From Gulosibacter sp. 10 (GTDB lineage Bacteria > Actinomycetota > Actinomycetes > Actinomycetales > Microbacteriaceae): DNA of 64,000 nucleotides. The DNA is taken from contig NZ_FUIC01000051.1 in the NCBI RefSeq assembly GCF_900163695.1, forward strand, positions 1 to 64,000, read 5' to 3'. The position numbers were made by a program, and so were the translations under genes. A model generated the notes under the pieces. That model saw only the letters and a program-made list of their open reading frames with translations. It was not told the DNA's origin and did no database searches. This document shows, piece after piece, positions 23,991-47,265 of the stretch; within the stretch, counting starts at the first letter, position 1, and every line of letters begins with the position of its first letter.

Positions 23991-24043
23991 GGGGCGCATG
24001 GCGCCGCGATGACGGATGCGGGCTCCGGCGGGCTATTCGTCCC
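23991..24043. repeat. 53-bp hairpin element, copy 1
   Basis: Left arm GGGGCGCATGGCG, 27-nt interior, right arm GGCTATTCGTCCC. The left arm has diverged and pairs only with wobbles and mismatches. Confidence 0.75.
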
Positions 24044-24135
24044 AGCGCGGGAGGGACCGGGCCGCCGTGCTGGGAGCCGGGCCGGCGTCGTCCGGCGCGG
24101 TCCGTCGTCCGGTGCGGCCGGGCTGCTGCGGCATC

Positions 24136-24188
24136 GGGACGCATGACTCCGCCGAGGAGGATGGGGCGCTCGCCCGGCTATCCGTCGC
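24136..24188. repeat. 53-bp hairpin element, copy 2
   Basis: Left arm GGGACGCATGACT, 27-nt interior, right arm GGCTATCCGTCGC. A degenerate copy of exact family length. Confidence 0.7.
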
Positions 24189-24219
24189 AATCCGGGCGCC
24201 GGGAGTAGCCCGAGGCGCT

Positions 24220-24366
24220 GGACCGCGGAGATTGAAAACCGCGGAGACCGGAAACCGCGGAGGCCGGGACCCGGAAACCTCGAAGACTGGAAACCACGGG
24301 GCCCGGGACCTGGAATCCACGGGGCCCGGGACCTGGAAACCGCGGAGGCCAGGACCGCGGAGACCG
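24220..24366. repeat. Degenerate 16/23-bp tandem repeats
   Basis: A run of units built on GGAAACCGCGGAGACC, some extended by GGGACCT to 23 bp. The clearest units are 24289-24311, 24312-24334 and 24335-24357. Non-coding; the block ends just after the moaD stop. Confidence 0.7.
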
Positions 24367-24376
24367 GCGGGCGTGC

Positions 24377-24607
24377 TCAGCCGCCGGCGAAGGGCGGCAG
24401 CACGTCCACCCGACCGGGCGGCAGCGGCCCGGCGTCGATCATCCTGCCCTCGGCGAGCAGGGAGCACTGCTCGAGCACGTGCGCGAACTCGGGCCCGAAG
24501 CGCTCGGCGAGCTCCGAGCGCAGCGCCTCGACCGTGCCGGCCTCGGCGCGCGTCTCCTCGAGCCCGGCCGCATCCGCCGCCGCGGCGAAGAGCCGGACCT
24601 CACGCAT
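24377..24607 (-). CDS. moaD: Molybdopterin synthase sulfur carrier subunit
   Basis: 76-aa ubiquitin-fold protein ending in Gly-Gly (PPFAGG), the tail adenylated and thiocarboxylated for transfer by MoaE. It begins VRLFAAAADAAG, typical of MoaD. It is the last gene of the minus-strand series thiF-moeA-moaC-DUF6457-moaD, and its start overlaps the DUF6457 stop by 8 nt. The ThiF-like protein encoded at the head of the same operon is its likely activating enzyme. Confidence 0.92.
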   Translation of the reverse strand: MREVRLFAAAADAAGLEETRAEAGTVEALRSELAERFGPEFAHVLEQCSLLAEGRMIDAGPLPPGRVDVLPPFAGG

Positions 24608-24899
24608 CGCGCAATTCCCCGTCCGGCCGCGCCTCGCCCGCGAGAAGGGGTTCGGCCTCGAGCGAGGCGACGAGGGCGCGGATCGCCGCATCCCCCGCCT
24701 CATCCGAGGGCACCGTGCCCCGGCCCACCGCGAGGCCGAGCAGGTAGGCGGTGACCGGCGCGGCGGGGCGCACGACGCCGTGCGCGACCACGCCGGTCAT
24801 GCCGAGCAGCTCGGCGATCGGCACGTCGGCGGGGTCGAGGCCGAGCGCGGGCGCGCAGCGGTCGACCCATTCCTGCAGGCCTTCGGGGAGGGATTTCAT
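24600..24899 (-). CDS. DUF6457 domain protein (Moco-associated)
   Basis: 99-aa acidic protein of the DUF6457 family, usually encoded beside, or fused to, MobA-type guanylyltransferases in actinobacteria. Visible features are LPEGLQEWVDRCAPALGL at the N-terminus and the central helical VTAYLLGLAVGRG. Here it stands alone, between moaC and moaD, and no mobA lies in this window. Its biochemical role is not established; a helper function in molybdopterin dinucleotide formation is inferred from context. Confidence 0.8.
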   Translation of the reverse strand: MKSLPEGLQEWVDRCAPALGLDPADVPIAELLGMTGVVAHGVVRPAAPVTAYLLGLAVGRGTVPSDEAGDAAIRALVASLEAEPLLAGEARPDGELRDA

Positions 24900-24942
24900 G
24901 GCGGCTCCTTGTCGGTGCGGTCGGCGGCGGGCGATGCTCGGC

Positions 24943-25473
24943 TCAGTCCTCGACGGGGATGGTGGGGATCGCACCGGTCAGCGGCGAGGACTGGTCGCTC
25001 GGGCGGCGCCACATGCCGGACTTGCCGCCCGTCTTCTCGACGAGCTCGATGCGCTCGATCGCGACGCCCTTGTCGATGCCCTTCACCATGTCGACGATCG
25101 AGAGCGCCGCCACGGATACCGCGGTGAGCGCCTCCATCTCGACGCCGGTGCGGTCGGCGGTGCGGACGGTGGCGCGCAGCTGCACGCCCTCCGCGGTGAG
25201 CGAGAGGTCCACGGTCGCGCCGTGCACGCCGATGATGTGCGCGAGCGGCAGCAGCTCGGCGGTGCGCTTGGCGCCGGCGATGCCGGCGATGCGCGCGGCC
25301 GCGAACACGTCGCCCTTCGGCACGGCGCGGTCGCCCAGCGCCTCCACGACCCGGGGCGAGCAGCGCACGAAGCCGCGGGCGGTGGCGCTGCGAACGGTCG
25401 GCTCCTTGTCGGTGACGTCGACCATGCGCACATGGCCCGAGCGGTCGAGGTGGGTGAAGTCGGATGCGGTCAT
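24943..25473 (-). CDS. moaC: Cyclic pyranopterin monophosphate synthase
   Basis: 176-aa MoaC, which with MoaA makes cyclic pyranopterin monophosphate from GTP. Recognisable blocks are MVDVTDKEPTVRSATARG near residue 17, KGDVFAAARIAGIAGAKRTAELLPLAH near 53-79, TGVEMEALTAVSVAALSIVDMVKGID near 112-137, and VEKTGGKSG near 146-154 with catalytic lysines. The usual LCHP after ELLP reads LAHI here. ATGA overlap with the upstream moeA gene. Confidence 0.94.
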   Translation of the reverse strand: MTASDFTHLDRSGHVRMVDVTDKEPTVRSATARGFVRCSPRVVEALGDRAVPKGDVFAAARIAGIAGAKRTAELLPLAHIIGVHGATVDLSLTAEGVQLRATVRTADRTGVEMEALTAVSVAALSIVDMVKGIDKGVAIERIELVEKTGGKSGMWRRPSDQSSPLTGAIPTIPVED

Positions 25474-26711
25474 GGCAGGATCTCCCAGATCGTCAGTCGG
25501 TCGCCCGCGCGGACGGCGTCGACCTCGGCGGGTACGAGGGCGATGGCCTCGGCGGCCGCGAGGCGGCTCACGAGGTGCGACCCCGAGCCGCCGGCGGTGG
25601 CGGGGACCACACGCCCCGGTGCCGAGAATCGTACCGGCATGAACTGCAACCGGCCCGGAGGGCACCGCCAGCCCTCCGCCGCCTCGGCCTCGGAGACGCG
25701 GCGGGGCTCGGGGCCGTCGCCGCGGAGCACGCCGAGCGCGGGCCGCACGAACGCCTCGAACGAGGTGAACACGCTCACGGGGTTGCCGGGCAGCGCGAAG
25801 ACGAGGGCCCCCGAGGCGAGGCGGCCGAAGCCCTGCGGCTTGCCCGGCTGCATCGCGACCTTGTCGAAGCGGACGCCGGCCGTCGCATCCGCCGCGCCCT
25901 CGAGCTCGATCCGCACCACGTCGAAGGCGCCGACGCTCACCCCGCCGGTGGTCACGATCACGTCGGCGAGCCCAGCCGCGCGCTCCACCGCGGTCGCGAA
26001 CTCCCCGCCCCCGTCGCCGGCGCGGAACTCGCCGACGAGCTCCGCGTCGGCCTCCTCGACGAGCCCGCGCACGAGCGTCGTGTTCGAGTCGTAGAGCCGT
26101 CCGTGCTCGAGTTCCCCGCCCGGCCGCACGAGCTCGTCGCCGGTCGCGATGAGCGCGACCCGCGGGCGGGGGCGTACGGCGATCTCCGCGACCCCGACCG
26201 CGGCGATGCCCGCGAGCACGCGGGCACCCAGCCGCTCGCCCGGTTCGGCGACGACCGCGCCGACGGGCGCATCCTCGCCGCGGCGGCGGATGTGGGCGCC
26301 GGGCTTCGGCTCGGCCAGCACAGCGACGGCCGACGCGGCCTCGGCGCGCACGTCGACGCCCTGCGCGGTGGCCTCGAAAGGCACGATCGCGTCGGCGTCC
26401 GCGGGCACGGGCGAGCCGGTCATGACGCGCGCGCACTCGCCCGGGCCGAGCGGCGGATTCGCGCCGGAGCCGGCGGGGACGTCGGCGACCACCCGCAGCT
26501 CGACCGGGGCGTCCTCGCCCGCGCCCAGCACATCCTCGCGCCGTACGGCGAAGCCGTCCATCGCGGAGTTGTCGAAGCCGGGCAGCGGCACGCTCGAGAC
26601 GACGCGCTCTGCGAGGCGGAGGCCGCGCGCCTCGGCGAGCGGCACGCGCCTCGGGGCGAGGGGCTCGGCGGCGGCGATGACCGCGGCGAGCTGGCCGTCG
26701 AAGGGGATCAT
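25470..26711 (-). CDS. moeA: Molybdopterin molybdenumtransferase
   Basis: 413-aa MoeA, which inserts molybdate into adenylated molybdopterin. Blocks: GFDNSAMDGFAV near residue 46, RVMTGSPVPADADAIVPFE near 96, IATGDELV...YDSNTTLV near 190-210, TTGGVSVGAFDVV near 246, and PGKPQGFGRL...ALPGNPVSVFTSFE near 285-315. Starts in an ATGA overlap with the thiF-like gene and ends in one with moaC, so translation of the three is coupled. Confidence 0.95.
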   Translation of the reverse strand: MIPFDGQLAAVIAAAEPLAPRRVPLAEARGLRLAERVVSSVPLPGFDNSAMDGFAVRREDVLGAGEDAPVELRVVADVPAGSGANPPLGPGECARVMTGSPVPADADAIVPFEATAQGVDVRAEAASAVAVLAEPKPGAHIRRRGEDAPVGAVVAEPGERLGARVLAGIAAVGVAEIAVRPRPRVALIATGDELVRPGGELEHGRLYDSNTTLVRGLVEEADAELVGEFRAGDGGGEFATAVERAAGLADVIVTTGGVSVGAFDVVRIELEGAADATAGVRFDKVAMQPGKPQGFGRLASGALVFALPGNPVSVFTSFEAFVRPALGVLRGDGPEPRRVSEAEAAEGWRCPPGRLQFMPVRFSAPGRVVPATAGGSGSHLVSRLAAAEAIALVPAEVDAVRAGDRLTIWEILP

Positions 26712-28219
26712 GCGTACTCCTGATGCGGGGGTTCGGGCCGGGCCTCGGGCGGGGCCTGGGATTCGGAGGGGATCTGGGAAGCGAAGAGGCTCTGGGAAGC
26801 CGAGGGGTTCCGAGGACCGGAGGGGACCTGAGCCGGGGCCGGCGCCGGGCGCGGCTGCGGGGACCCGGCGAGCAGGGGCGCGAGCGCGGGGATCCCGCCG
26901 GGCAGCGCCTCGACGCGCTCCGCTCCGAGTTCGCGGAGCAACCCGACGGCGTACCGGGCGCGGGGGCCCTGCGCGCACACGACTCGGAGCGGCCGCGAGA
27001 GATCGAGTCCGGGCAGGTCGCGGCCGGAGGCGAGCGCCTCGGCGATGGATTCGAGGGGTACGCGCGCGGCCTCGCGGTCGAGCGCGAGTTCGGGATGGGC
27101 CGCGGGGCGCACATCGACGATGAGGGCGTCCGCGGGCAGCGCGAGACCTGGAGGCGTGGGATCCGGTGACGTGCGATCTGGCAGCGTGGGATCTGGCAGC
27201 GCGGAATCCGGCAGCTCGGGATCCGGCAGCTCGGGATCCGGCAGCGCGGAATCTGGCGGCGCGGGATCCGCCGGCGTGGCGGCTGGCAGCGCGGGATCTG
27301 CCCCGTGCCCCGGCGCGTCCGCATCCGGCCGGGTGGGCGGATGCGCGTGTCCATCCCCTGCGTCGCGAATGCTCGAGGGGTGCGCGTCCGGTCCCGGTCG
27401 CGCATCCGCCCTCGCACGCGCGTGCGCATTCGCATCCGTCCGTGCATCCGTTCGCGCCCGTGCGACGAGCGGGATCTCGCGCACCCGCCCCGTGCGCGCG
27501 TTCCAGGACCGCACGACGCCGATCATCGGCTTACCCGAGCCTGTGACGAGCTTGAGCGCCTCGCCGGCCATCGCCGCGCCGATCTCGCCCACGAGCGGCG
27601 CGAACACGCCCGCGGCGGCGCAGTCCGGGCCGGGCGTCGCGAGCTGCCGATCGCGGTCGAGTAGATCGTCCAGCCCCGGATCGCCGGGCCGGCCCGAGAG
27701 CACCGTGAGCATCCCGTCCCAGCCGAGCACGCTGCCCCAGACGAGCGGGATGCCCGCCGCGCGGCAGGCGTCGGCCACGGCGAACCGCGTGGGCCAGTGG
27801 TCCGTGGTGTCGAGCACCGCATCCGCGCCCTCGACCAGCGCCGCCGCATTGCCGCGGTCGAGCACGACGCGCATCGGGCGGACCTCGGCACCGGGCCCGA
27901 GCCCGGCGAGGGCGCGCGCCGCGACCTCGGCCTTGGGCAGCCCGAGGTCGGCCTCGCGGAAGAGGATCTGCCGGGCGAGGTTCGAGCGCTCGACCTCGTC
28001 GTGGTCGACGACGTCGAGGGCGCCGATGCCGGAGGAGGCGAGCAGCTGCAGCGCGGGGCAGCCGAGCCCGCCCGCGCCGATCACGACCACGCGCGCCGCC
28101 GCGGCGCGGGCGAGGCCCGGGGCGCCGTAGCCGAGCAGCCGCTCGTGGCGGGCCTGGCGCTCGCGCCGCTCCGCGGACGCGAGAGGGCCGGCTGACTGCT
28201 GCGGGGCGCTGGACGGCAT
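26708..28219 (-). CDS. ThiF/MoeB-type E1 enzyme fused to a rhodanese domain
   Basis: 503-aa protein. Residues ~20-270 are an E1-like adenylating domain: GAGGLGCPALQLLASSGIG near 48, DTTDHWPTR near 137, and the region with the likely acceptor cysteine in DCAAAGVFAPL near 198. The C-terminal part (~375-460) is a rhodanese domain with a catalytic Cys in VVCAQGPRA. The linker (~285-365) is very long and low complexity, with LPDPE-like pentapeptides from a 15-bp repeat. A second Ser/Pro-rich tail follows. It should adenylate MoaD and supply sulfur. No CxxC zinc pairs were seen, unlike classical MoeB. A -10 box lies 6 nt before the ATG. Confidence 0.88.
   Translation of the reverse strand: MPSSAPQQSAGPLASAERRERQARHERLLGYGAPGLARAAAARVVVIGAGGLGCPALQLLASSGIGALDVVDHDEVERSNLARQILFREADLGLPKAEVAARALAGLGPGAEVRPMRVVLDRGNAAALVEGADAVLDTTDHWPTRFAVADACRAAGIPLVWGSVLGWDGMLTVLSGRPGDPGLDDLLDRDRQLATPGPDCAAAGVFAPLVGEIGAAMAGEALKLVTGSGKPMIGVVRSWNARTGRVREIPLVARARTDARTDANAHARARADARPGPDAHPSSIRDAGDGHAHPPTRPDADAPGHGADPALPAATPADPAPPDSALPDPELPDPELPDSALPDPTLPDRTSPDPTPPGLALPADALIVDVRPAAHPELALDREAARVPLESIAEALASGRDLPGLDLSRPLRVVCAQGPRARYAVGLLRELGAERVEALPGGIPALAPLLAGSPQPRPAPAPAQVPSGPRNPSASQSLFASQIPSESQAPPEARPEPPHQEYA
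27177..27298. repeat. 15-bp coding minisatellite in the thiF-rhodanese gene
   Basis: About eight imperfect copies of a 15-bp unit (plus-strand GGCAGCGCGGGATCT and variants) encode the LPDPE/LPDSA linker on the minus strand. The period is a multiple of three, so copy-number change would keep the frame. Confidence 0.8.
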
Positions 28220-28225
28220 GGCACC

Positions 28226-28231
28226 AACCTA
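28226..28231 (-). promoter_or_regulatory. -10 box of a probable leaderless transcript (thiF-moeA-moaC-moaD operon)
   Basis: On the minus strand TAGGTT is followed by 6 nt and the ATG at 28219, with no ribosome site between. Confidence 0.55.
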
Positions 28232-28296
28232 TCGGAACCCGTGCGGGCGCCGCCCGGCGGGGGACGGCCACGGTCTCGGCCCTGCCCCGGGCCGGA

Positions 28297-28302
28297 TAGA
28301 CT
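28297..28302 (+). promoter_or_regulatory. -10 box for modABC
   Basis: TAGACT about 63 nt before the modA ATG, with AGAGGGAC as ribosome site near 28353. No -35 or ModE-type palindrome could be assigned with confidence. Confidence 0.4.
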
Positions 28303-28364
28303 CGACGGTGCGGCCGCCGTGCGCTTCGCGCCGCATGTTCCGAAGACGCGACAGAGGGACCACG

Positions 28365-29120
28365 ATGAAGACGATCCGCAGCGGACTGGCCATCGCCTCG
28401 GGAGCGGCGCTGCTCCTCGGCACGAGCGCGTGCAGCGCGCAGGACGGGGGCGAGGGCGAGACCCTGCACATCCTCGCCGCCGCCTCGCTCGATCAGGCGT
28501 TCACGCAGATCATCGACGACTTCTCTGCCGAGCATCCCGACGTCGAGGTCGCACCGCTCGTGACGGCCGGCTCGCAGGACCTCGTGCAGCAGGTGATCGA
28601 GGGCGCGCCCGCCGATGTCCTCGCGCTCGCGAGCGAACCGAGCGCGGCGCCGCTCGAGGAGGCAGGGGTCGAGACCGACTTCTCGATCTTCGCCGAGAAC
28701 ACGCTCGTCATCGCGGTGCAGCCGGGCAACCCGCACGACATCCAGGGGCTCGAGGACCTCGAGGCCGAGGACCTGCGCATCGCGATCTGCGCGGTCGAGG
28801 TACCCTGCGGCGCCGCGACCGAGGAGCTGCTCGGCCTCGCGGGGGTCGAGATCGCCGGCGCCACCGAGGAGACGAGCGTGTCCTCGGTACTCGCCAAGGC
28901 GGAGCTCGGCGAGGTGGACGCGGCGCTCGTCTACCGCAGCGACGTGGTGACCTCGAGCGGCGACCTGGAGGCCGTCGAGCCCGAGCAGGCCGCCGAGGTC
29001 GTCAACCGCTACCCGATCACCGCGCTCGGCGACAGCCCCGCCGCCACCGCCTTCGTCGAGTACGTCCGCTCCGAGGCGGGGCGCGAGGTGCTCGAAGAGG
29101 CCGGCCTGATCGTGCCGTGA
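28365..29120 (+). CDS. modA: Molybdate ABC transporter substrate-binding lipoprotein
   Basis: 251-aa molybdate/tungstate receptor. Signal peptide with a lipobox TSAC places the lipid-modified Cys at residue 23. The mature protein opens LHILAAASLDQAF, typical of ModA, with QPGNPHDIQGLEDL near 125 and EVPCGAATEELL near 147. Divergent from the Moco operon across a 145-bp gap and followed by modB in a GTGA overlap. It captures molybdate outside the cell for Moco-dependent enzymes such as the FdhF-like protein nearby. Confidence 0.95.
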   Translation: MKTIRSGLAIASGAALLLGTSACSAQDGGEGETLHILAAASLDQAFTQIIDDFSAEHPDVEVAPLVTAGSQDLVQQVIEGAPADVLALASEPSAAPLEEAGVETDFSIFAENTLVIAVQPGNPHDIQGLEDLEAEDLRIAICAVEVPCGAATEELLGLAGVEIAGATEETSVSSVLAKAELGEVDAALVYRSDVVTSSGDLEAVEPEQAAEVVNRYPITALGDSPAATAFVEYVRSEAGREVLEEAGLIVP

Positions 29121-29926
29121 CCCCCGCGCGCAGCCTCCACCGGGGCGGTACGCCCTGGCCCGTCGCCGTGCTCGCGGGGCTCGCGCTGCTCGCGATCATC
29201 GCCCCGCTCGCGGCGCTGCTGCTGCGCGTCGACTGGGTCGAGTTCCCGGGCATCCTCGCCTCGCCGACCGTGCTCGGCGCGCTCGGGCTCTCCTTCGGCA
29301 CCGCGCTCATCGCGACCATCGCCTGCATCCTGCTCGGCGTGCCGCTCGGCACGGCGCTCGCCCGAGCCCGGCCGCGTCCCGCGAGCCTCGGCCGGGCACT
29401 CGTGCTCGTGCCGCTGCTCATGCCCCCGCTCGTGGGCGGCCTCGCGCTGCTCTCGCTGTTCGGCCGCACCGGCGCGGTCGGCGGGCTGCTCGCCTCGCTC
29501 GGCATCGCGCTGCCGTTCACGACACCGGCCGTGGTGATCGCGCAGACCTTCGTGGCGCTGCCCTTCCTCGTGATCTCGGTCGAGCAGGCCGTGCGCGCCA
29601 TCGACCCCCGGCTCGAGCCGGTCGCGCGCACCCTGGGTGCTGGGCGCGGCGGCGTGTTCGCCCGGGTCACGCTGCCGCTCATCCGGCCGGCCATCCTCGC
29701 CGGGGCCACCATGAGCTTCTCCCGCGCGCTCGCTGAGTTCGGCGCCACGGCCCTGTTCGCGGGGAATGTCGAAGGGGTCACCCGCACGATGCCGCTCGCG
29801 ATCTACTCGGTGTTCAACGGCGCGGTCGGCGGGCCCGAGCAGGCCTACGCGCTCGCGGTGATCCTGGTTGCCTCGGCCGTGGCCGTGCTCATCGCCGTCC
29901 GCGGATGGCGGGTGCAGGGCGTATGA
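29117..29926 (+). CDS. modB: Molybdate ABC transporter permease
   Basis: 269-aa inner-membrane permease with about six hydrophobic helices. The cytoplasmic ATPase-coupling loop is seen in the region around FSRALAEFGATALFAGN near residue 200, the ModB hallmark. GTG start in a GTGA overlap with modA. It ends in an ATGA overlap with modC. Confidence 0.94.
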   Translation: MTPARSLHRGGTPWPVAVLAGLALLAIIAPLAALLLRVDWVEFPGILASPTVLGALGLSFGTALIATIACILLGVPLGTALARARPRPASLGRALVLVPLLMPPLVGGLALLSLFGRTGAVGGLLASLGIALPFTTPAVVIAQTFVALPFLVISVEQAVRAIDPRLEPVARTLGAGRGGVFARVTLPLIRPAILAGATMSFSRALAEFGATALFAGNVEGVTRTMPLAIYSVFNGAVGGPEQAYALAVILVASAVAVLIAVRGWRVQGV

Positions 29927-31269: not shown

Positions 31270-31304
31270 GCCGCTGAACCGGTCAGCTGCCGGTCCGGGG
31301 CGGT

Positions 31305-31336
31305 CTGCCGGTTCGAGGGCCTGCCGGTTCGAGGGC
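31305..31336. repeat. Two exact copies of a 16-bp unit
   Basis: CTGCCGGTTCGAGGGC twice in tandem, with a third partial copy leading into hairpin element copy 3. Confidence 0.8.
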
Positions 31337-31346
31337 CTGCCGGTTC

Positions 31347-31399
31347 GGGACGAATAGCCTTGCCGGCTCAGATGCATGGTTCGCGGGGCTATTCGTCGC
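31347..31399. repeat. 53-bp hairpin element, copy 3
   Basis: Left arm GGGACGAATAGCC, 27-nt interior, right arm GGCTATTCGTCGC; 12 of 13 arm positions pair. Lies 78 bp after modC. Confidence 0.85.
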
Positions 31400-31479
31400 T
31401 GTTCGGGTTGGGAGTGTTCTGGTCTGCGGGGCAGCCGGTGGATTGGTGGTCTGCTGGTTCGGGGGCAGCCTGCCGGTTC

Positions 31480-31532
31480 GGGGCGAATAGCCTCGCGGGC
31501 TCAGATGTGTGCTTCGCGGGGCTATTCGTCGC
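31480..31532. repeat. 53-bp hairpin element, copy 4
   Basis: Left arm GGGGCGAATAGCC, right arm GGCTATTCGTCGC. Part of the second 133-bp unit. Confidence 0.85.
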
Positions 31533-31611: not shown

Positions 31612-31664
31612 GGGGCGAATAGCCTTGCCGACGCGGAGAGCTGCTTTGCCCGGCCATCCGCCCC
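31612..31664. repeat. 53-bp hairpin element, copy 5
   Basis: Left arm GGGGCGAATAGCC, right arm GGCCATCCGCCCC, same 53-bp span although the interior and right arm have diverged. Confidence 0.75.
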
Positions 31665-33155: not shown

Positions 33156-33208
33156 GGGACGAATAGCCTCGCCGAGTCGAATACTCGGATGCGTCGGCCA
33201 TACAACCC
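33156..33208. repeat. 53-bp hairpin element, copy 6
   Basis: Left arm GGGACGAATAGCC, right arm GGCCATACAACCC (degraded). An inner stem CCGAGT-CGAAT-ACTCGG is intact. In the 296-bp gap after the DUF2207 gene, where nothing else was recognised. Confidence 0.75.
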
Positions 33209-33348
33209 GGCGCGGGCGGACCGGCAGCCCGGATCGTACACGCGGGAACGACTGCCGCGCGTTCGCCCCTGCGGCTGGGGATGCGCAGTCCTCCACAGGC
33301 CGAAGCCGGCGCCGGGAAAAGATGGCCCGATTCGGGTCGACTGGTGCC

Positions 33349-34233
33349 ATGGACCGACGCTTCGACCGACATCTCGCCGAGCACGACGGCGTGGCGACGA
33401 CGGCGCAGCTCCGCGGCCTCGGCGCGACCCGCCACGACCTTCGCCGGTGGGCCGAGACCGGGACGCTGATCAGGCTGCGGCCGGGGTGGTACGCCCGGCC
33501 CGATGTCGAGCAGGATGTCCGATGCGCGGTCGCGGCGGGCGGCGCGATGAGCGGCTCGGCGGCTCTCGCGAGGCACGGGCTCTGGATCCCGGCGGGCGAG
33601 CCGTTCCAGGTGCGAGCGCGCGAACGGGCGCGGGTCGCGCGGCTGACGATCCCGGCGCCACCCGGAGGGGAACCCGCGGCGATCGAGCCGTATGCGCTGC
33701 CGCGCTCGAGGGACCTGCCGGTGGTCCGCGCGGTCGACGAGGCGCCCACCGCGCTGCTCGCCGCGATGCTGAGCCGTCCGCGGGATACGGCGGTGATCCT
33801 CGCGGATTCGGCGCTGCACACGCGGAGGATCACGTGGGGTCTGCTCCGCCGGGTCGCGGAACGCGCCGGCTACAAGGGCGGCGAGGTGCTGTCGCGGGTC
33901 GCCGGGACGGCGGAATCCGGCACCGAGACCTGCTTCCGCCTCTGGCTCGTCGCCCACGGCATCCGGTTCCGGGCCCAGGCGCGGATCTGCCGCGGCTGCC
34001 GGGTGGACTTCCTCATCGGCGACCGCCTCATCGTGGAGATCGACAGCCGGATGCATCACACCGATCCCTCGGCCTACGCGAAGGACCGCGCCCGGGACCG
34101 GATGCTGTTGCGGATGGGATACCGGGTGCTGCGGCTCACCTACGCCGAGGCGATGCACGGGCTGGACGAGGTGGGCCGCGATGTCCTCGCCCTCATCCGG
34201 CGGCGGGAGCACCTCGGCCCGCTCGCGGCCTGA
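33349..34233 (+). CDS. AbiEi-like N-terminal domain plus DUF559 endonuclease-like domain
   Basis: 294-aa protein. The N-terminal part (DGVATTAQLRGLGATRHDLRRWAETGTLIRLRPGWYA) is the winged-helix module seen in type IV toxin-antitoxin AbiEi antitoxins. The C-terminal part is DUF559, related to Vsr-type/restriction-like nucleases, with a PD-(D/E)XK-like core VDFLIGDRLIVEIDS near residue 222 and a following histidine pair. Such fusions are common in actinobacteria and their role is unproven. No toxin partner gene lies beside it. ATG 33349 gives the expected family length. Confidence 0.82.
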   Translation: MDRRFDRHLAEHDGVATTAQLRGLGATRHDLRRWAETGTLIRLRPGWYARPDVEQDVRCAVAAGGAMSGSAALARHGLWIPAGEPFQVRARERARVARLTIPAPPGGEPAAIEPYALPRSRDLPVVRAVDEAPTALLAAMLSRPRDTAVILADSALHTRRITWGLLRRVAERAGYKGGEVLSRVAGTAESGTETCFRLWLVAHGIRFRAQARICRGCRVDFLIGDRLIVEIDSRMHHTDPSAYAKDRARDRMLLRMGYRVLRLTYAEAMHGLDEVGRDVLALIRRREHLGPLAA

Positions 34234-34476
34234 CGGTTGCGGCGAGCCCCTCCGCCGTGCGCGCCGAACAGTCCACCCCGGTGCGCTGCGGCATGCCGCC
34301 CTCCCGAGCCTCTCCGCCGTGTGTGCCGAACAGCCTGCGGCAGGCGTTCTTCGGCGATGGCGCAGGCCGGACAGGGAGGGCGGCGCATTAGGGCGTGTCG
34401 AGACGGCCGAATGGGGATGGACGGGCGTCGGGAAACCACCCTGCCCTGCACTCTGGGAGCGCGGGATGGCCGGATG

Positions 34477-34529
34477 GGGATGCATGGCTGCGCGGCGGAG
34501 CAACGGTGGATGCCGCGGCTATTCGTCGC
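34477..34529. repeat. 53-bp hairpin element, copy 7
   Basis: Left arm GGGATGCATGGCT, interior 27 nt, right arm GGCTATTCGTCGC. The inner bases GCGCGG and CCGC can extend the stem. Confidence 0.75.
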
Positions 34530-34652: not shown

Positions 34653-34705
34653 GGGGCGCATGGCGGCGCGGCGCCGAGTATGGGGATGCGGCGGCTATTC
34701 ATCCC
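34653..34705. repeat. 53-bp hairpin element, copy 8
   Basis: Left arm GGGGCGCATGGCG (identical to copy 1), right arm GGCTATTCATCCC. Confidence 0.75.
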
Positions 34706-34741
34706 GGACTCGGCGTAGGGCAGGACGGGCGGGACGCCCGG

Positions 34742-34893
34742 TGCAGGGCAGGGCGCCGAGTGCAGGGCAGGGCGCCGAGTGCAGGGCAGGGCGCCGAGTG
34801 CAGGGCAGGGCGCCGAGTGCAGGGCAGGGCGCCGAGTGCAGGGCAGGGCGCCGAGTGCAGGGCAGGGCGCCGAGTGCAGGATAGGGCGTCGAG
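34742..34893. repeat. 19-bp minisatellite, seven exact copies plus one degenerate
   Basis: TGCAGGGCAGGGCGCCGAG is repeated exactly seven times (34742-34874), followed by TGCAGGATAGGGCGTCGAG (34875-34893). It is non-coding and 3' of the FdhF-like gene. The lack of variation suggests recent expansion. Confidence 0.95.
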
Positions 34894-40585: not shown

Positions 40586-40683
40586 TCGCCCGGCATCGGT
40601 GGAAGTTCGCGTAATGGTTGACGTTCCCGCACATCGACCGGCCCTTCGTGCTGAGCGTCTCGGCGCGGGACGGGCCGCCGTGC

Positions 40684-41865: not shown

Positions 41866-41930
41866 GTCAGCGGCGTCCCTCCGTTGGTATTTAGTTTTTT
41901 TATTTATCGGCTTCTGACACTGTGCAGGCG
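41866..41930 (-). promoter_or_regulatory. AT-rich promoter region of the orphan ATPase
   Basis: The minus strand reads GATAAATAAAAAAACTAAATACC, one of the few strongly AT-rich stretches in the window. Several -10-like hexamers are possible (for example TAAATA). Confidence 0.5.
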
Positions 41931-41990
41931 AACGGCCAACTGTCCGATCGGGGGCGGAGCGACGGTCGGGGCTTGCGAAGAACCCGGAAA

Positions 41991-42043
41991 GCGACGAATG
42001 GCCCCGCGGAACCGGATGAGGGTTCCGCCGGGCCATTCGTCCC
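41991..42043. repeat. 53-bp hairpin element, copy 9 (probable terminator)
   Basis: Left arm GCGACGAATGGCC, right arm GGCCATTCGTCCC, with an inner perfect stem GCGGAACC/GGTTCCGC around loop GGATGAG. It is the best-paired copy. It lies 17 bp beyond the E2 stop and would terminate that minus-strand operon. Confidence 0.9.
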
Positions 42044-42060
42044 CGACAGGCAGGCGGTCG

Positions 42061-43512
42061 CTACACCAGCAGCGACATGGGCTCCTCGATGCGGCGCACG
42101 AACGCCGCGAGCCACTGGGCGGCGAGCGCCCCGTCGAGCACGCGGTGATCGGCCGAGAGGGTCACGGTCATGACCTTCGCGACCTCGAGCGCGCCGCCCT
42201 CGCCCACGACCGGCCGGTCGGCGGCCGCGCCGACGGCGAGGATGCCCGACTGCGGCGGGTTGAGGATGGCCGAGAACTCCTCCGTGCCGTACATGCCGAG
42301 GTTCGACACCGAGAACGAACCGCCCTCGAGCTCGTGCTGCTTGAGCCGGCCCTCGCGGCCGCGCCCGGCGAGCTCGCGGATCTCCGCGCTCAGCGCCGAG
42401 AGCGACTTGCGCTGCACGTCCCGCACCACCGGGGTCACGAGCCCGTTCGGCACGGACACGGCGACCGCGATGTCGACGGCCTCGAAGCGGCGCACGGCCG
42501 TGTCGGTCCAGATGGAGTTCGCCTCGGGCACCTCGACGAAGGCGGCGGCTGCCGCCTTCACGACGAGGTCGTTCACCGAGATCTTCACCGGCGAGACCTC
42601 GTTGAGCCGCGCGCGCAGATCCAGCAGCGCGCCGACCCGAAGGTCGGCCTTCAGGTAGAAGTGCGGCACGCTCGACTTGCTCTCGGTGAGCCGCCGGGCG
42701 ATCGCGCGGCGCATGCCGGTGTGCGGGATGTCCTCGTGCGGCCGGTCTGTGCCCGGCGCCGGTGCGCCCGACACGGCGGCCGGCCCCGTGGCGGCCGGCC
42801 CCGCGGCGGCCTGGCCCGTGGGGGCCGGATCCGCAGGGGCGGATTCGGAGGGGGCGGACTCGGTGAGGGCGTGCCCGGCGGCGGGAGCGGCCGGGACGGA
42901 GGCGCTCGCGGGCCCCTCCGCGAGGTGGCGCTCGATATCGCGGCGCACGATGCGGCCGTTCGGGCCGGTGCCGGTCAGCTCGGCGACGTCGACGCCCGCC
43001 TCCTTCGCGAGCTTGCGCGCGAGCGGACTCGAGAAGATGCGCGCGCCGGCGGCAGACGCGGCGGCGGCAGACGCGGCGGCGTCCGTCGCGGCCCCGGCCG
43101 GGGTCGCCGCGCGCTCGGGTGCGGGCGCATCCGCGGGGCGCTCGGGCGCGGGCGCATCCGCCTCGGGCGCCGAGTCGGCGTCCGGTCGGCCCGACCCGTC
43201 CGGTCGGTCCGAACCGTCCGAGCCGTCCGCCCCGACCGGCGCGTGCTCCGCCAGCGCGTCCGCCGTCGACTCGCCCTCCGCGGCGATCACCGCGATGCCG
43301 GTGCCCACGGGGATGGGCGACCCGGCCTCGACCAGGGCGCCGGCGAAGACGCCCTCGTGCTGGGCCTCGTACTCCACGACGGCCTTCTCCGTCTCGATCT
43401 CGGCCAGCGGCCGGCCGACGGCGATCGCGTCGCCCGCCTGCACGAGCCAGGCGACGATCGTCGCATCCTCGCCTCCCGCGGCGAGCTGCGGCATCCGGAT
43501 GAGCTCCGACAT
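42061..43512 (-). CDS. 2-oxoacid dehydrogenase complex E2 (dihydrolipoyl acyltransferase)
   Basis: 483-aa E2. The lipoyl domain has the lipoylated Lys43 in EIETEKAVVEYEA. An Ala/Pro/Asp-rich linker follows. The E3/E1-binding domain (SSPLARKLAKEAGVDVAELTGTGPNGRIVRRDIE) is near 150. A second linker precedes the catalytic domain with DHRVLDGA near 455. It transfers the acyl group made by E1 to CoA. Its start shares one base with the E1 stop. No E3 gene is in this operon, so lipoamide dehydrogenase must come from elsewhere. The substrate may be pyruvate, acetoin or a branched 2-oxoacid. Confidence 0.92.
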   Translation of the reverse strand: MSELIRMPQLAAGGEDATIVAWLVQAGDAIAVGRPLAEIETEKAVVEYEAQHEGVFAGALVEAGSPIPVGTGIAVIAAEGESTADALAEHAPVGADGSDGSDRPDGSGRPDADSAPEADAPAPERPADAPAPERAATPAGAATDAAASAAAASAAGARIFSSPLARKLAKEAGVDVAELTGTGPNGRIVRRDIERHLAEGPASASVPAAPAAGHALTESAPSESAPADPAPTGQAAAGPAATGPAAVSGAPAPGTDRPHEDIPHTGMRRAIARRLTESKSSVPHFYLKADLRVGALLDLRARLNEVSPVKISVNDLVVKAAAAAFVEVPEANSIWTDTAVRRFEAVDIAVAVSVPNGLVTPVVRDVQRKSLSALSAEIRELAGRGREGRLKQHELEGGSFSVSNLGMYGTEEFSAILNPPQSGILAVGAAADRPVVGEGGALEVAKVMTVTLSADHRVLDGALAAQWLAAFVRRIEEPMSLLV

Positions 43513-45698
43513 CAGTTCCCTCCCCAGGCCTGGCGCACGCGCTCGAGCCCCGCGACGACCTCTTCGGTGCCGGCGATCGCGGCGCGCTCGAGCACCTTCG
43601 AGATCGACGGCGAGGCCTCGCCGCCGGTGACCCGCTCGATCGGCTGATCGAGGTAGTCGAAGTAGCGGCGCTGGATCTCGTCGGCGAGCCACGCGCCGTA
43701 GGACGTGCCGCGCGCGCCCTGCTCGACGATCAGCACGTTGCCGGTCTTGCGGATCGACTCGCCGATGGTGTCCCAGTCGAGGGAGGCGCGGTCGAGCCAG
43801 CGCAGGTCGACGACCTCGGCGTCCACGCCCGTCCGCTCCACGGCCTCGAGGGAGCGGTCGACCATCGACAGGTACGTGAGGACGGTGGCTTCCGAGCCCT
43901 CGCGGCGCACCGCGGCGCTGCCGGGCGGGATGACGTAGTCGAGCCCGCCCGCGGGCACGCTGTCCTTCTTGCCGTAGAGGTCCACGTGCTCGATCACGAG
44001 CACCGGGTCGTTCAGCGCGAGCGCCGCGTTCATGAGGCCCACGTAGTCGGCCGCCGTGGAGGCGGCGACGATGCGCCAGCCCGGGTGCGCGGCGTAGATG
44101 CCGGCCGGGTCCATGAGGTGCTGCGAGCCGTAGCCCGAGCCCATCGCGACCTTGGAGCGGAGCACGAGCGGCACGTCGCTCTCGCCGCCGAACATGTGGC
44201 GGATCTTGCCGGCCTGGTTGAACACCTGATCGGCGGCCACCCACATGAAGTCGGCGTACATGAACTCCACCACTGGGCGGTAGCGCCCGTCGAGCGCGAT
44301 GCCGGTGGCGAGGCCGAAGAAGCCGTTCTCGCTGATGGGGGTGCCGATGACGCGCTCCGCGCCGAACCGGTCCACGAGGCCCTTGGTGGCGCCGTTCGTG
44401 CCGCCGCCGAGGTGCTGGACGTCCTCGCCCATCACGACGATGCGGTCGTCCGCCGCCATCCGCTCGCCCATGACCTCGGCCACGGCGTCGACGAACGCGA
44501 TGTCGCGCCACTCCTGGGCCTCGGCGGGCTCGGCCGCGCGCAGCGGCTCGAGCTCCTCGCCCGAGGAGCGGATGCCGACGTCCACGAAGGCGGGGTCGGG
44601 CCAGAGCTCGGGGCGGATGCGGCGGGCGCCGGTCTTCGACTCCGGGTCGGGTTCGACGAGCGCCTCGACGATGCCGCGCATCGCATCCACGGCCTGGGCG
44701 CGGACGGCGGCGACGCCCTCCTCGTCGATGCGGCCGAGCCGCTGCATCTCGTCGGCCACCCGCTGCAGCGGGTCGCGCCGCCGCCATTCCTGCTCCTCGT
44801 CCTTGCTGCGGTAGCCGAACGCGCTGCCGGGGAAGGGGCCGTTCTGGTGGAAGAAGCGGTAGACCTCGGCCTCGATGATCGCGGGGCCCTCGCCCGCGCG
44901 CATCCGCTCGAGCGCCTCCTGGGTCGCGAGGTGCACGGCGAGGGGGTCCATCCCGTCCACCTGCCAGGAGGGGACGGCGAAGCCCTGACCGCGGATCGAG
45001 AACCGGGTGTCTGCGGCGATCTCGGCCGCGTGGGTCGAGACGGCGTACTGGTTGTTCTCGATGAAGTAGGCCACCGGGAGCTTCCACGCCGCCGCGAGGT
45101 TGAAGGATTCGAGCACCGAGCCGATCTGGCTCGAGCCGTCGCCGAAGTAGTTGATCGTGACGCCGTCGGTGCCGGCGCGCCGCTGGGCCCACGCGTTGCC
45201 CGCGGCCATCGGGGCGCCGCCGCCGACGATCGCGTTGGTGCCGAGCGCGCCGGCCTCGAGCCACTGCAGGTGCATCGAGCCGCCGCGGCCGTGCGAGAAG
45301 CCCTGGTCGAGGCCGAGGATCTCGGCGAGGGTGCGCTGCAGCACCTCGCGCAGCTCGGGGCCGACGAGGGCCCCGAGGTCGAGGTCGGGGGCGACGTGGC
45401 CGATGACCTTCGCGAGGAACTGGTGATGGCCGCGATGCGAGCCGCTCACGCCGTCCTCGCTGGTCAGACCCAGGATGGATCCAACCGCGCCGCCCTCCTG
45501 GCCGATGCTCGAGTGCGCCGGGCCGTGGACGAGGCCCTCGCCGGCGAGCTGCAGGACGGCCTCCTCGAACGCGCGGACGAGGTGGAGCCGGCCCAGCATG
45601 TTGGCGAGCAGCTGGGGGTCTGCGGCCTCCCAGTCTTCGGGAGTGGTCTCGAGCCGGACCCAGGGGACTCCGGTCTCGAGCGGGATTCGTGTGGGCAT
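43512..45698 (-). CDS. 2-oxoacid dehydrogenase E1, alpha and beta fused
   Basis: 728-aa thiamine-diphosphate enzyme with E1-alpha (about 1-340) joined to E1-beta (about 395-728). The alpha part has GRGGSMH near residue 138 and the ThDP motif GDGSSQIG...FNLAAAWKLPVAYFIENN near 190. The beta part has VMGEDVQHLGG near 420, GTPISENGFFGLATGIAL near 454 and the transketolase C-terminal domain. Fused E1 of this size occurs in branched-chain and acetoin-type complexes. It is first gene of a two-gene operon, divergent from the VOC gene across a GntR-type operator. Confidence 0.9.
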   Translation of the reverse strand: MPTRIPLETGVPWVRLETTPEDWEAADPQLLANMLGRLHLVRAFEEAVLQLAGEGLVHGPAHSSIGQEGGAVGSILGLTSEDGVSGSHRGHHQFLAKVIGHVAPDLDLGALVGPELREVLQRTLAEILGLDQGFSHGRGGSMHLQWLEAGALGTNAIVGGGAPMAAGNAWAQRRAGTDGVTINYFGDGSSQIGSVLESFNLAAAWKLPVAYFIENNQYAVSTHAAEIAADTRFSIRGQGFAVPSWQVDGMDPLAVHLATQEALERMRAGEGPAIIEAEVYRFFHQNGPFPGSAFGYRSKDEEQEWRRRDPLQRVADEMQRLGRIDEEGVAAVRAQAVDAMRGIVEALVEPDPESKTGARRIRPELWPDPAFVDVGIRSSGEELEPLRAAEPAEAQEWRDIAFVDAVAEVMGERMAADDRIVVMGEDVQHLGGGTNGATKGLVDRFGAERVIGTPISENGFFGLATGIALDGRYRPVVEFMYADFMWVAADQVFNQAGKIRHMFGGESDVPLVLRSKVAMGSGYGSQHLMDPAGIYAAHPGWRIVAASTAADYVGLMNAALALNDPVLVIEHVDLYGKKDSVPAGGLDYVIPPGSAAVRREGSEATVLTYLSMVDRSLEAVERTGVDAEVVDLRWLDRASLDWDTIGESIRKTGNVLIVEQGARGTSYGAWLADEIQRRYFDYLDQPIERVTGGEASPSISKVLERAAIAGTEEVVAGLERVRQAWGGN

Positions 45699-45750
45699 CC
45701 TTGCCTCGCCTTCGTGGTCGATCTTCCCTCGCGGGGTGACTGCTCCGCTT

Positions 45751-45764
45751 GATTGGATACAATC
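45751..45764. promoter_or_regulatory. GntR/FCD-type operator in the E1/VOC divergent region
   Basis: GATTGGATACAATC is a 14-bp palindrome with one mismatched pair, matching the TTG-N4-CAA form of FCD-type GntR sites. It overlaps TACAAT (45758-45763), a likely -10 for the plus-strand VOC gene. The regulator at 46505-47182 is the nearest candidate. Confidence 0.65.
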
Positions 45765-45836
45765 TTAGGCGACATGCGCGCTCCAGAGCAACGACGACGG
45801 CGAGGCGCGCACGAACGAGCAGCGACAGGAGCAGGC

Positions 45837-46358
45837 ATGATCCCAGGCATCCGCGGTACCGACCACTTCGGCATCACCGTTCCCGATATGGCCGAGGCGC
45901 ACGAATTCCTCACCCGCATCCTCGGCGCGGTGCCGATCTACGAGCTCGGCGGGAAATCCGCCGAGGACGACTGGATGGCCGTGCAGCTCGGCGTGCACCC
46001 GCGGACCACGATCACGGACATCCGCTTCTACCGGCTCGGCAACGGCTCGAACATCGAGCTGTTCGCCTACGATTCGGCGGACGGGCAGCGCCCCCAGCCC
46101 CGCAACAGCGACATCGGCGGGCATCACCTCGCCTTCTACGTCGACGACATCGATGCCGCGGTCGCGTGGCTGCGAGGCGAGGGCGTCGAGGTGATGGGGG
46201 AGCCGGTGGCGAGCGCCGAGGCCGCGGCCGGCCAGCGCTGGGTCTACTTCCGGGCCCCGTGGGGGCTGCAGTTCGAGCTCGTGAGCTACCCGGAGGGGAA
46301 GGCCTACGAGGCGGATGCCGACGTGCTGCTCTGGCATCCGGCGCATCCGGCCCGCTGA
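45837..46358 (+). CDS. VOC (glyoxalase/bleomycin-resistance-like) protein
   Basis: 173-aa vicinal-oxygen-chelate protein with two beta-alpha-beta-beta-beta modules: GTDHFGITVPDMAEAHEFL near residue 6 and GGHHLAFYVDDIDAAVAWL near 90. Metal-ligand candidates are the His of DHFG, the Glu of SNIELFAY, His92/93 and the Glu of QFELVSYPEG. It may be a lyase, dioxygenase or epimerase. ATG 45837 is favoured by ACAGGAG upstream; ATG 45774 is closer to the -10 and would add 21 residues. The E1-E2 operon is divergent and a GntR gene follows. Confidence 0.82.
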   Translation: MIPGIRGTDHFGITVPDMAEAHEFLTRILGAVPIYELGGKSAEDDWMAVQLGVHPRTTITDIRFYRLGNGSNIELFAYDSADGQRPQPRNSDIGGHHLAFYVDDIDAAVAWLRGEGVEVMGEPVASAEAAAGQRWVYFRAPWGLQFELVSYPEGKAYEADADVLLWHPAHPAR

Positions 46359-46392
46359 TCCCCGCTGCTCCTCCGCGCACGCCGGGTCGGTG

Positions 46393-46480
46393 TTCGGCTC
46401 GCGGCGCGGTTCGGCTCGCGGCGCTGCCCGGTTCGCGGCACCGCCCGGTTCCCGGCGGCGCCCGGTTCGCGACGGCCCGG
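46393..46480. repeat. Degenerate 17-bp repeats upstream of a GntR gene
   Basis: Five imperfect units of the type TTCGCGGCACCGCCCGG (17, 22, 17, 17 and 15 bp) fill the gap between the VOC and GntR genes, ending 12 bp before the -10 box. Confidence 0.65.
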
Positions 46481-46492
46481 GCGCCGCGCCGC

Positions 46493-46498
46493 TAGATT
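46493..46498 (+). promoter_or_regulatory. -10 box of a probable leaderless transcript (GntR gene)
   Basis: TAGATT, then 6 nt, then GTG 46505, with no ribosome site. Confidence 0.6.
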
Positions 46499-46504
46499 GG
46501 TGCT

Positions 46505-47182
46505 GTGAGCACTTCCATTCCACGAGCGGACCGCGTCGCCCACGGCAGCGCCGGCAGCCACGTCGCCCGGCGGCTGCGCGAGGCGATCCTCGAGGGCGGC
46601 TTCGCCCCGGGCTCGCGGCTGCGGCAGGAGGAGCTGGCGGAGCGCTTCGAGGCGTCCCGGGTGCCGGTGCGCGAGGCGCTCCGGCTGCTCGAGGCCGAGG
46701 GGCTCGTGACCAACGTGCCCAACAAAGGGTCCTGGGTGGCGAGGCTCAACCACGCCGAGTGCGACGAGCTCTACCGCGTGCGCGAGCGGCTCGAGCCGCT
46801 CCTGCTGACGATGAGCATCCCCGGGCTCACGCCCGAGGTCGTCGACGAGCTGCGCCGCCTCGCCGACGCGATGGGCGGGGCGGTCTCGCCCGAGGAGTTC
46901 CTGCGGCTCGACACCGAATTCCACGCGCTCACCTACTCGGGCGCGGGCACGATCTGGCTCGGCGAGCAGGTGCGCCGGCTGTGGAACCGCACCCAGCACT
47001 ACCGGCGGGCGTTCGCCGTCCTCGTGCGCGCGGAGGGCGACGAGGTCGTGGACCACGACCACCAGCTGCTCGTGGCCGCGATCGCCGCGGGCGACGCCGA
47101 GGAGGCGGGCTCGGTGCTCGCGTTCCACATCCGCCGCACGCGCCTGCAGCTCGCCGAGCACCCCGAGATCTTCACGGCCTAG
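46505..47182 (+). CDS. GntR-family regulator (FCD type)
   Basis: 225-aa regulator. The winged helix occupies about residues 15-80 (VARRLREAILEGGFAPGSRL and FEASRVPVREALRLLEAEGLV). The FCD effector domain follows with metal-site residues Asp in LDTEFHALTY near 138 and the histidines in DHDHQLLVAAI and LAFHIRRTR. Such proteins sense organic acids. It probably binds the operator at 45751-45764 and controls the 2-oxoacid dehydrogenase operon and VOC gene; that link is positional. Confidence 0.88.
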   Translation: MSTSIPRADRVAHGSAGSHVARRLREAILEGGFAPGSRLRQEELAERFEASRVPVREALRLLEAEGLVTNVPNKGSWVARLNHAECDELYRVRERLEPLLLTMSIPGLTPEVVDELRRLADAMGGAVSPEEFLRLDTEFHALTYSGAGTIWLGEQVRRLWNRTQHYRRAFAVLVRAEGDEVVDHDHQLLVAAIAAGDAEEAGSVLAFHIRRTRLQLAEHPEIFTA

Positions 47183-47212
47183 CCGTCCCCGGGCGGCGCC
47201 GGCGCCCCGACT

Positions 47213-47265
47213 GGGACGGATAGCCCGCCGGAGCGTCATCGCGCCTCGACGCGGCTATCCGTCCC
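47213..47265. repeat. 53-bp hairpin element, copy 10
   Basis: Left arm GGGACGGATAGCC, right arm GGCTATCCGTCCC: all 13 positions pair, with a compensatory A-T to G-C change at position 7 relative to other copies. It lies 30 bp after the GntR stop, in a 254-bp gap that otherwise holds only low-complexity GC-rich sequence. Confidence 0.9.

What the first reader, a model, noticed from the sequence alone, without database searches (positions are those of the whole stretch)
23991..47265. Ten intergenic copies of an exactly 53-bp hairpin element with covarying 13-bp arms
Seen directly: copies at 23991, 24136, 31347, 31480, 31612, 33156, 34477, 34653, 41991 and 47213, each spanning exactly 53 bp as 13-nt arm + 27 nt + 13-nt arm, consensus GGGACGAATAGCC ... 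GGCTATTCGTCCC. None lies in a gene. Copy 10 has a paired A-T to G-C change at arm position 7 and copy 9 one at position 10, so the structure seems conserved rather than the sequence. Interiors differ almost completely. Inference: a dispersed REP-like or terminator-like family, or a small non-autonomous element. Fixed length with a variable interior is unusual for intrinsic terminators. No known element name was recognised.
Basis: partly seen in the sequence, partly recalled or inferred. Interest (0 to 1): 0.85.

Follow-up and report, generated by a model that had tools for sequence, protein, structure and literature searches.

The report
Fixed-length dispersed DNA palindrome family
This bacterium carries about a hundred copies of a 53-base DNA palindrome whose length hardly ever varies although its middle does, lying mostly on the origin side of the chromosome and, in this window, on both sides of a nuclease-like gene that may help it spread.

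Summary
The ten 53-bp copies are real and intergenic. Genome-wide this "type I" family has at least 105 copies in 39 clusters, often tandem arrays (52 of 66 neighbour spacings are 86-150 bp). Length is constrained: with relaxed arms and gaps of 15-45 allowed, all 88 strand-matches in 1.04 Mb share one gap. The interior is partly conserved (core CGNATAT). The same genome holds type II (79 bp, 20 copies), type III (59 bp, at least 72 loci) and a small type IV. Type I was not found in 59 relatives; two siblings carry type III-like palindromes with different arms. On contigs I could place, types I-III lie almost wholly on the origin side (29/1 clusters, 16/0 copies, 35/0 loci, near/far). No Y1/RAYT transposase was found. 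All four AbiEi-DUF559 nuclease-like genes detected in the DNA fetched from this genome and sibling G003 (one at window 33349-34233) have a palindrome, each of a different family, ending 93-143 bp upstream of the start. A follow-up prediction for type III failed at both loci fetched. Best reading: REP-like selfish palindromes, perhaps served by these nucleases. New variant of a known kind; the nuclease link is only suggestive.

The parts
23991..24043 (+). type I copy 1 (53 bp)
   Evidence: convergent gap 23758/24377
24136..24188 (+). type I copy 2
   Evidence: same convergent gap
31347..31399 (+). type I copy 3, first of a 3-copy head-to-tail array
   Evidence: tandem gap 31269/31952
31480..31532 (+). 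type I copy 4 (array)
31612..31664 (+). type I copy 5 (array)
33156..33208 (+). type I copy 6; ends 140 bp before the start codon of the nuclease-like gene
33349..34233 (+). AbiEi_4 + DUF559 nuclease-like gene flanked by type I copies on both sides; candidate cognate protein (association only)
   Evidence: Pfam DUF559 2e-9, AbiEi_4 2e-7; flanking; alignment with three homologues
34477..34529 (+). type I copy 7, downstream of the nuclease-like gene
   Evidence: convergent gap 34233/34960
34653..34705 (+). type I copy 8
   Evidence: same convergent gap
41991..42043 (+). type I copy 9
   Evidence: tandem gap 41316/42061
47213..47265 (+). type I copy 10 (13 of 13 arm pairs)
   Evidence: convergent gap 47182/47437

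Best explanation
Type I is a REP-like, non-coding, DNA-level palindromic repeat. SHOWN: it is dispersed and multi-copy; its total length is held at 53 bp while the 27 interior bases diverge; copies within an array resemble each other more than copies elsewhere; it prefers gene 3' ends; on placed contigs it is confined to one side of the chromosome; and the genome holds other palindrome families of other fixed lengths. INFERRED: a protein recognises the two arms at a fixed spacing, which is why substitutions but not length changes survive in the interior. INFERRED, less certain: that protein is an AbiEi-DUF559 nuclease-like protein, one per family, whose own gene carries an element 93-143 bp upstream of its start. 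Its AbiEi-type N-terminal domain would bind the arms and its DUF559 domain would nick or cut, so that repair copies the palindrome into nearby sites (homing-like, mainly local) and binding perhaps also regulates the gene. The confinement would then reflect spread mainly near the nuclease locus, or an independent constraint set by distance from the origin.
For: Fixed length: 24 of 30 loose forward matches have gap 27 and the other six look like background; 88 of 88 relaxed-arm strand-matches have one gap out of 31 tested; type II arms were found independently 50 bp apart in 19 of 20 copies. Local growth: interior identity 0.70 within arrays, 0.48 between clusters. Insertion or expansion: a 1,665-bp gap with 8 copies against 169 bp between the same two orthologues in G003, and 638 bp with 4 copies against 128 bp. 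Domain: near/far type I clusters 29/1, type II copies 16/0, type III loci 35/0. Nuclease link: the 2 of 2 such genes detected in 1.04 Mb of own DNA are flanked on both sides by elements, while 12 of 846 predicted genes are; 2 of 2 homologues in the 1.2-Mb G003 sample have a family element upstream; gaps to the start 93, 119, 140, 143 bp (background 32 of 846 own and 5 of 683 G003 predicted genes with an element within 200 bp upstream; the two G003 homologues are not among the 683). G003 TAGGACGCA family: 7 other copies of span 63-64 lie on average 59 kb, at most 227 kb, from that gene; with one looser copy of span 65 that I had left out, 8 copies average 87 kb, at most 288 kb.
Against: The prediction written down, that a type III pair about 1.1-1.3 kb apart brackets a nuclease gene, failed: the C33 and C38 loci encode other proteins, and the C12 pair was already known not to fit. 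A homologue on a Tsukamurella plasmid, the one of four plasmid hits that I examined, has no comparable palindrome beside it. Only four genes support the link, it was noticed after the fact, and the own DNA was fetched largely around elements. Type II pairs also flank a lipoprotein gene and an orphan gene, so flanking is not specific to nucleases. Type II reaches about 0.7 Mb from its nuclease contig. In 5 of 9 syntenic element-bearing gaps the G003 gap is the longer one (my G003 gene calls are incomplete). The predicted structure was too poor to use (mean pLDDT 42). No target-site duplication was seen by eye.
Confidence: 0.45

Rival explanations
1. Chromosome-domain sites: the palindromes are binding sites of a DNA-organising or nucleoid-occlusion-like protein and are kept out of the terminus half, as Noc and SlmA sites are.
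For: Three families lie almost wholly on the origin side of placed contigs; gap supply is equal, 24 gaps of at least 60 bp in 60 kb proximal against 64 in 160 kb distal; type II is non-polar (8 with, 8 against the fork among 16 placed copies; hand tally); Noc and SlmA sites are palindromic and under-represented near Ter (PMC4726725, passages).
Against: Type I was not found in 10 of 10 siblings or 49 wider relatives, the type II pattern in 0 of 10 siblings; three unrelated families share the pattern; arrays and species-specific arms look selfish.
Confidence: 0.15
2. RNA-level 3'-UTR hairpins (terminators or mRNA stabilisers) selected in transcripts.
For: Type I bias to convergent and tandem gaps; strong folding of many of 20 copies; G-T against A-C arm mismatches within one copy tend to be on one strand (with one copy per cluster mean z 3.1, 5-95% range 1.4-4.9).
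Against: No T-run; the wobble sense does not consistently follow transcription in tandem gaps (66 against 34 in total, mixed by region); strand-biased deamination or shared ancestry explains it too; the type I interior stem is not kept; type II is not at 3' ends; no Rfam match in the window.
Confidence: 0.15
3. Relics of ordinary REP/RAYT or MITE transposition by an enzyme now lost or unrecognised, with arrays from slippage and palindromes tidied by template switching.
For: REP-like placement and copy number; template switching can keep hairpins perfect (PMC8794818, search listing only); CGTC REPs also lack a known transposase (PMC3733652, abstract and passages).
Against: No Y1_Tnp match in the genome, though only that family was searched; no unpaired GTAG/CGTC tag; copies mostly in one orientation, not alternating; neutral drift alone would not hold length while the interior diverges (inference).
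Confidence: 0.25

Closest known systems
REP / BIME elements (GTAG- and CGTC-tagged palindromes)
   Same: Short extragenic palindromes in high copy, several families per genome, mainly between tandem or convergent genes, some clustered; CGTC REPs also lack a known transposase (PMC3733652: abstract, passages and section 15 read). The same paper mentions untagged REP-like families in other bacteria, M. tuberculosis among them (passage).
   Different: No unpaired GTAG/CGTC tag; long variable interior at constant length; 79 bp for type II, against 20-40 bp (PMC3733652) or 21-65 nt (PMC6006769, passage); copies mostly in one orientation; no Y1 match; confined to one side of the chromosome on placed contigs, whereas most REP families in PMC3733652 are spread throughout the genome.
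RAYT / REPtron
   Same: A nuclease-like gene bracketed by copies of the palindrome family (window and C27).
   Different: The protein matches AbiEi_4 + DUF559, not Y1_Tnp; activity untested. One paper says that the Actinobacteridae of its sample carry only the IS200-type subclass 1.1 (PMC6006769, passage).
Vsr-like homing endonucleases
   Same: Weak sequence hits to 3hrl 'endonuclease-like protein' (E 0.019) and 3r3p 'mobile intron protein' (E 0.99); possible break-driven copying. The Vsr/EDxHD label is recalled.
   Different: Not in an intron or intein; a REP-like palindrome instead of a homing site; neither hit is significant at the default cut-off.
Noc / SlmA sites
   Same: Palindromic sites restricted to part of the chromosome (PMC4726725, passages).
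   Different: Noc sites have a 14-bp consensus; these elements are longer, often in arrays, and species-specific.

Membership tests
REP (GTAG/CGTC-tagged) | palindromic, multi-copy, extragenic | tested here: met
   105 type I copies, 0 overlapping a predicted gene
REP (GTAG/CGTC-tagged) | size | tested here: inconclusive
   53 bp: outside 20-40 bp (PMC3733652) but inside 21-65 nt (PMC6006769)
REP (GTAG/CGTC-tagged) | unpaired GTAG or CGTC tag at one end | tested here: not met
   CGTC in the right arm is base-paired; flanks carry no conserved tag
REP (GTAG type) | RAYT (Y1_Tnp) gene in the genome | tested here: not met
   PF01797: 0 matches at E 0.001 in the 99% complete own genome; rings in 5 of 14 controls
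BIME | copies in alternating orientation | tested here: not met
   22 of 24 gaps with two or more type I copies have one orientation by model score (counted; elements are near-symmetric)
Intrinsic terminator | G+C stem followed by a T-run | tested here: not met
   no T-run conserved within 40 bp of either side
MITE / IS derivative | terminal inverted repeats with target-site duplication and a related transposase | tested here: inconclusive
   no duplication seen by eye; gaps compared with G003 by length only; of transposases only Y1 was searched
Rfam RNA family | match above gathering score | tested here: not met
   0 in window; at E up to 1 over 11 loci only two miRNA models below their gathering scores
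Noc/SlmA-like domain sites | palindromic and confined to part of the chromosome | tested here: met
   contig order inferred by synteny with G003
Noc/SlmA-like domain sites | a dedicated DNA-binding protein | not testable with these tools
   needs binding or ChIP data
DUF559 and AbiEi_4 Pfam families (window protein 33349-34233) | match over curated cut-off | tested here: met
   DUF559 37.8 bits (cut-off 20.6), AbiEi_4 31.4 (cut-off 25); MTES_1575 32.7 is under its 38.2

The most novel reading that the evidence does not exclude
A nuclease-palindrome system parallel to REP/RAYT but built on a different enzyme: several families of fixed-length palindromes in this genus, each spread and regulated by its own AbiEi-DUF559 protein that measures the distance between the two arms, spreading mainly near its own gene and so painting one chromosomal domain.
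Probability: 0.35. Interest if true: 0.85.

Novelty: new variant of a known kind. Interest (0 to 1): 0.7.

Why it matters
Palindromic repeats without a known mobiliser are an open problem (CGTC REPs are reported as lacking a dedicated transposase, PMC3733652). A genome with palindrome families of set lengths lying on one side of the chromosome, and nuclease-like genes each beside a different family in this genus, gives directly testable candidates. Constant length with a drifting interior would be an unusual natural read-out of a DNA-binding complex that measures spacing. DUF559 is a Pfam family of unknown function, and a plasmid homologue is annotated only as an AbiEi-family antitoxin-domain protein.

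Tried and rejected
RAYT/Y1 mobiliser: no match. Rfam: nothing above threshold. The genome-contig scan gave one hit, Solibacteraceae, which lacks the GGG/CCC arm ends and was judged chance; the 24 viral contig hits lack the full arms, many are variants of one sequence at 53-54% G+C, and were judged chance. Integron attC: ends do not fit RYYYAAC/GTTRRRY (recalled). KOPS-like polarity: type II 8 with, 8 against the fork. DNA between G003 TAGGACGCA copies holds ordinary-looking genes. The type III nuclease prediction failed. Structure prediction unusable, so no fold search was made. Type III-model matches in 11 of 198 other genomes of the family may only be long perfect hairpins and are not claimed as homologues. 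G003's other repeat families lean to the origin side only weakly (rank p 0.02 to 0.34). Literature: ten searches. In the listings I saw no paper joining DUF559 with palindromic repeats or describing such repeats in this bacterial family, but this is weak evidence of absence: one search matched 35,733 papers and listed 15, one search listed 12 of 43, one search listed 15 of 72. Four papers were opened: PMC2817692 (passages), PMC4726725 (passages), PMC3733652 (abstract, passages, section 15), PMC6006769 (passages).
Full report
OBSERVATION. They score 21-24 of 24 on the arm consensus; nothing else in the window exceeds 17, and 20 simulated sequences reach at most 19. All are intergenic in my gene prediction, a home-made GC-frame predictor, not a curated annotation. 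Arm pairing is 8-13 of 13 Watson-Crick pairs per copy. The window is nearly all of a 64,432-bp contig (C41) of a 3.65-Mb, 55-contig draft genome; no tool names the organism, and from the sizes of its relatives and its gene content I think of Microbacteriaceae (inference, untested).

GENOME-WIDE. A covariance model of the arms returns 150 rows (the cap; both strands) at E up to 1. A PWM scan of 424 kb fetched around those hits gives 114 elements and no hit scoring between 8 and 20: 105 of the window's kind (type I) and 9 of a second kind. Type I falls into 39 clusters; 52 of 66 spacings between neighbours in a cluster are 86-150 bp, and 22 of 24 gaps with two or more copies have one orientation by model score. 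Interiors are 70% identical within arrays and 48% between clusters.

FIXED LENGTH. Allowing gaps of 15-45, 24 of 30 forward matches genome-wide have gap 27; the other six have the background-like form ATCGCC or GGCGAT on a side. With a more relaxed arm pattern in 1.04 Mb, 88 of 88 strand-matches (both strands counted) have one single gap. Against this, a few rows are 52 or 54 long or partial, and one copy (C2:1267) scores low without gaps and may carry an indel. Conservation is at sequence level in the arms and at a central CGNATAT. In type I only pair 7-47 stands out as covarying after weighting by cluster; the interior stem is not maintained.

OTHER FAMILIES. Type II is 79 bp, GGCTGCYGTTCCG-53-CGGAACRGCAGCC, 20 copies; arms were found separately 50 bp apart in 19 of 20. 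Type III is 59 bp, CAGATGCGTCGCAG...CTGCGACGCATCTG: 25 copies in fetched DNA and 72 distinct loci in the capped and truncated genome list, with compensatory pairs inside (pairs 16, 17, 19, 20: 15, 19, 17, 15 of 25 paired against 10.5, 11.1, 12.8, 9.3 expected). Type IV is TAGGAGGGC...GCCCTCCTA, 64-65 bp, 5 copies in fetched DNA; sibling G003 has TAGGACGCA...TGCGTCCTA of mostly 63-64 bp. The type III model gives 32 rows in G007, 17 in G008, 2 in G005, 1 in G001, none in six others; the six G007/G008 loci I looked at are near-perfect 58-60 bp palindromes with quite different arms, while the G005 and G001 loci are not convincing. Type I: 0 of 59 relatives at E 1e-5, 10 of them siblings. Type II pattern: 0 of 10 siblings.

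POSITION. Twelve parS-like sites (consensus recalled) lie at C27:56.8-62.2 kb and nowhere else, taken as marking the origin. Contigs were placed on complete sibling G003 by 132 reciprocal best hits against 60 sampled 20-kb pieces. Among the 21 contigs with two or more concordant hits, near (under 0.8 Mb) against far: type I clusters 29 in 1,320 kb / 1 in 1,078 kb; type II 16 / 0; type III 35 / 0 (contig permutation p at most 2.5e-4, 0.0018, at most 2.5e-4). Limits: 9 type I clusters, 4 type II copies and 37 type III loci, the window's included, lie on contigs not placed. C22 (1 type II; two discordant hits, one on the far side) and C51 (2 type III, 1 type IV; one far-side hit) were left out and would count against confinement. 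Type I and III absence from far contigs rests on capped whole-genome lists and 20-kb samples; the type II arm search and the type I right-arm search (47 matches, none on a far contig) were genome-wide. Gap supply is equal on both sides. The order is inferred by synteny, not observed.

GENE CONTEXT. Type I: 41 gaps, of which 20 convergent, 17 tandem, 3 divergent, 1 edge; background 69/216/115 of 400; Fisher 9e-6 for convergent, 0.002 for divergent, the edge gap dropped. Type II is not biased (3 convergent, 11 tandem, 4 divergent, 1 overlap region). Type III: 6 convergent, 8 tandem, 2 divergent, 1 edge. Of nine element-bearing gaps between neighbouring orthologues in G003, four are shorter in G003, most clearly 1,665/169 and 638/128 bp, and five are longer, my G003 gene calls being incomplete.

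THE NUCLEASE LEAD. The gene at 33349-34233 between copies 6 and 7 encodes an AbiEi_4 + DUF559 protein; the longer ORF 33189-34391 in another frame has no Pfam match and is not taken as the gene. Of 846 genes predicted in fetched own DNA, 12 are flanked on both sides by elements. The only two DUF559 genes found there are both among them: this one (type I) and C27:25660-26577 (type II; Pfam), 60% identical. G003's sample has two homologues (47% and 33% to the C27 protein); one has a TAGGACGCA element, the other a 61-bp TGCGGCAC-family element (left arm with two mismatches) directly upstream. Element-to-start gaps are 140, 93, 119 and 143 bp; 32 of 846 own and 5 of 683 G003 predicted genes have an element within 200 bp upstream. 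The four proteins share invariant D220, E230, D232, H237 and a DRxRD stretch, which I read as a nuclease-like site from recalled family knowledge. In G003 seven other TAGGACGCA copies of span 63-64 lie on average 59 kb, at most 227 kb, from the gene; with a looser copy of span 65 included the eight average 87 kb, at most 288 kb. Neighbouring copies collapsed, chance is about 0.0016 and 0.0008 respectively. Type I cluster density is highest on C41 and type II density on C27, C41 being biased because the window was chosen for its copies.

AGAINST IT. I wrote down a prediction for type III before looking: it failed at both loci fetched, and a third pair was already known not to fit. The Tsukamurella plasmid homologue, the one of four plasmid hits examined, has no such palindrome. 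The association is post hoc, on four genes, in DNA fetched largely around elements.

VERDICT. A real REP-like repeat with an unusual length rule and an apparent chromosomal confinement, accompanied by further families; a nuclease link worth testing but not shown.

Noticed in passing
window 34741-34893: Minisatellite of 19 bp, 8.1 copies, 97% matches, just after copy 8.
   Followed up: partly
G000 C27:26554-26584: The type II copy after the C27 nuclease-like gene supplies its last seven codons and the stop (protein ends GCCSGCV), so the gene abuts the element.
   Followed up: partly
upstream of the four AbiEi-DUF559 genes and in L272: A TCCACAG motif resembling a DnaA box (recalled) lies between palindrome and start at C41 and G3a, more loosely at C27 and G3b, and also upstream of the Tsukamurella homologue.
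   Followed up: no
G003 samples and own DNA: GGATGCGC is greatly over-represented (869 against 57 for the reversed motif in 1.2 Mb of G003), inside and outside genes, with no strand skew between replichores.
   Followed up: partly
G000 C16:28613-29530 and C33:18957-19484: Single genes (an orphan and a Myco_19_kDa lipoprotein) bracketed by type II copies like cassettes.
   Followed up: partly
G000 C49:49576-50241: An HNH_repeat (homing-endonuclease-associated repeat) protein next to a type II copy.
   Followed up: no
G003, e.g. 1860078, 2901675, 3092919: Another intergenic palindrome family, TGAGTAGC..CGTATCGAA, with variable span and more matches on the origin side (40 in 27 samples against 15 in 33).
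   Followed up: partly
type I arms genome-wide: G-T and A-C arm mismatches within one copy tend to share a strand; cause open: strand-biased mutation, shared ancestry or selection.
   Followed up: partly
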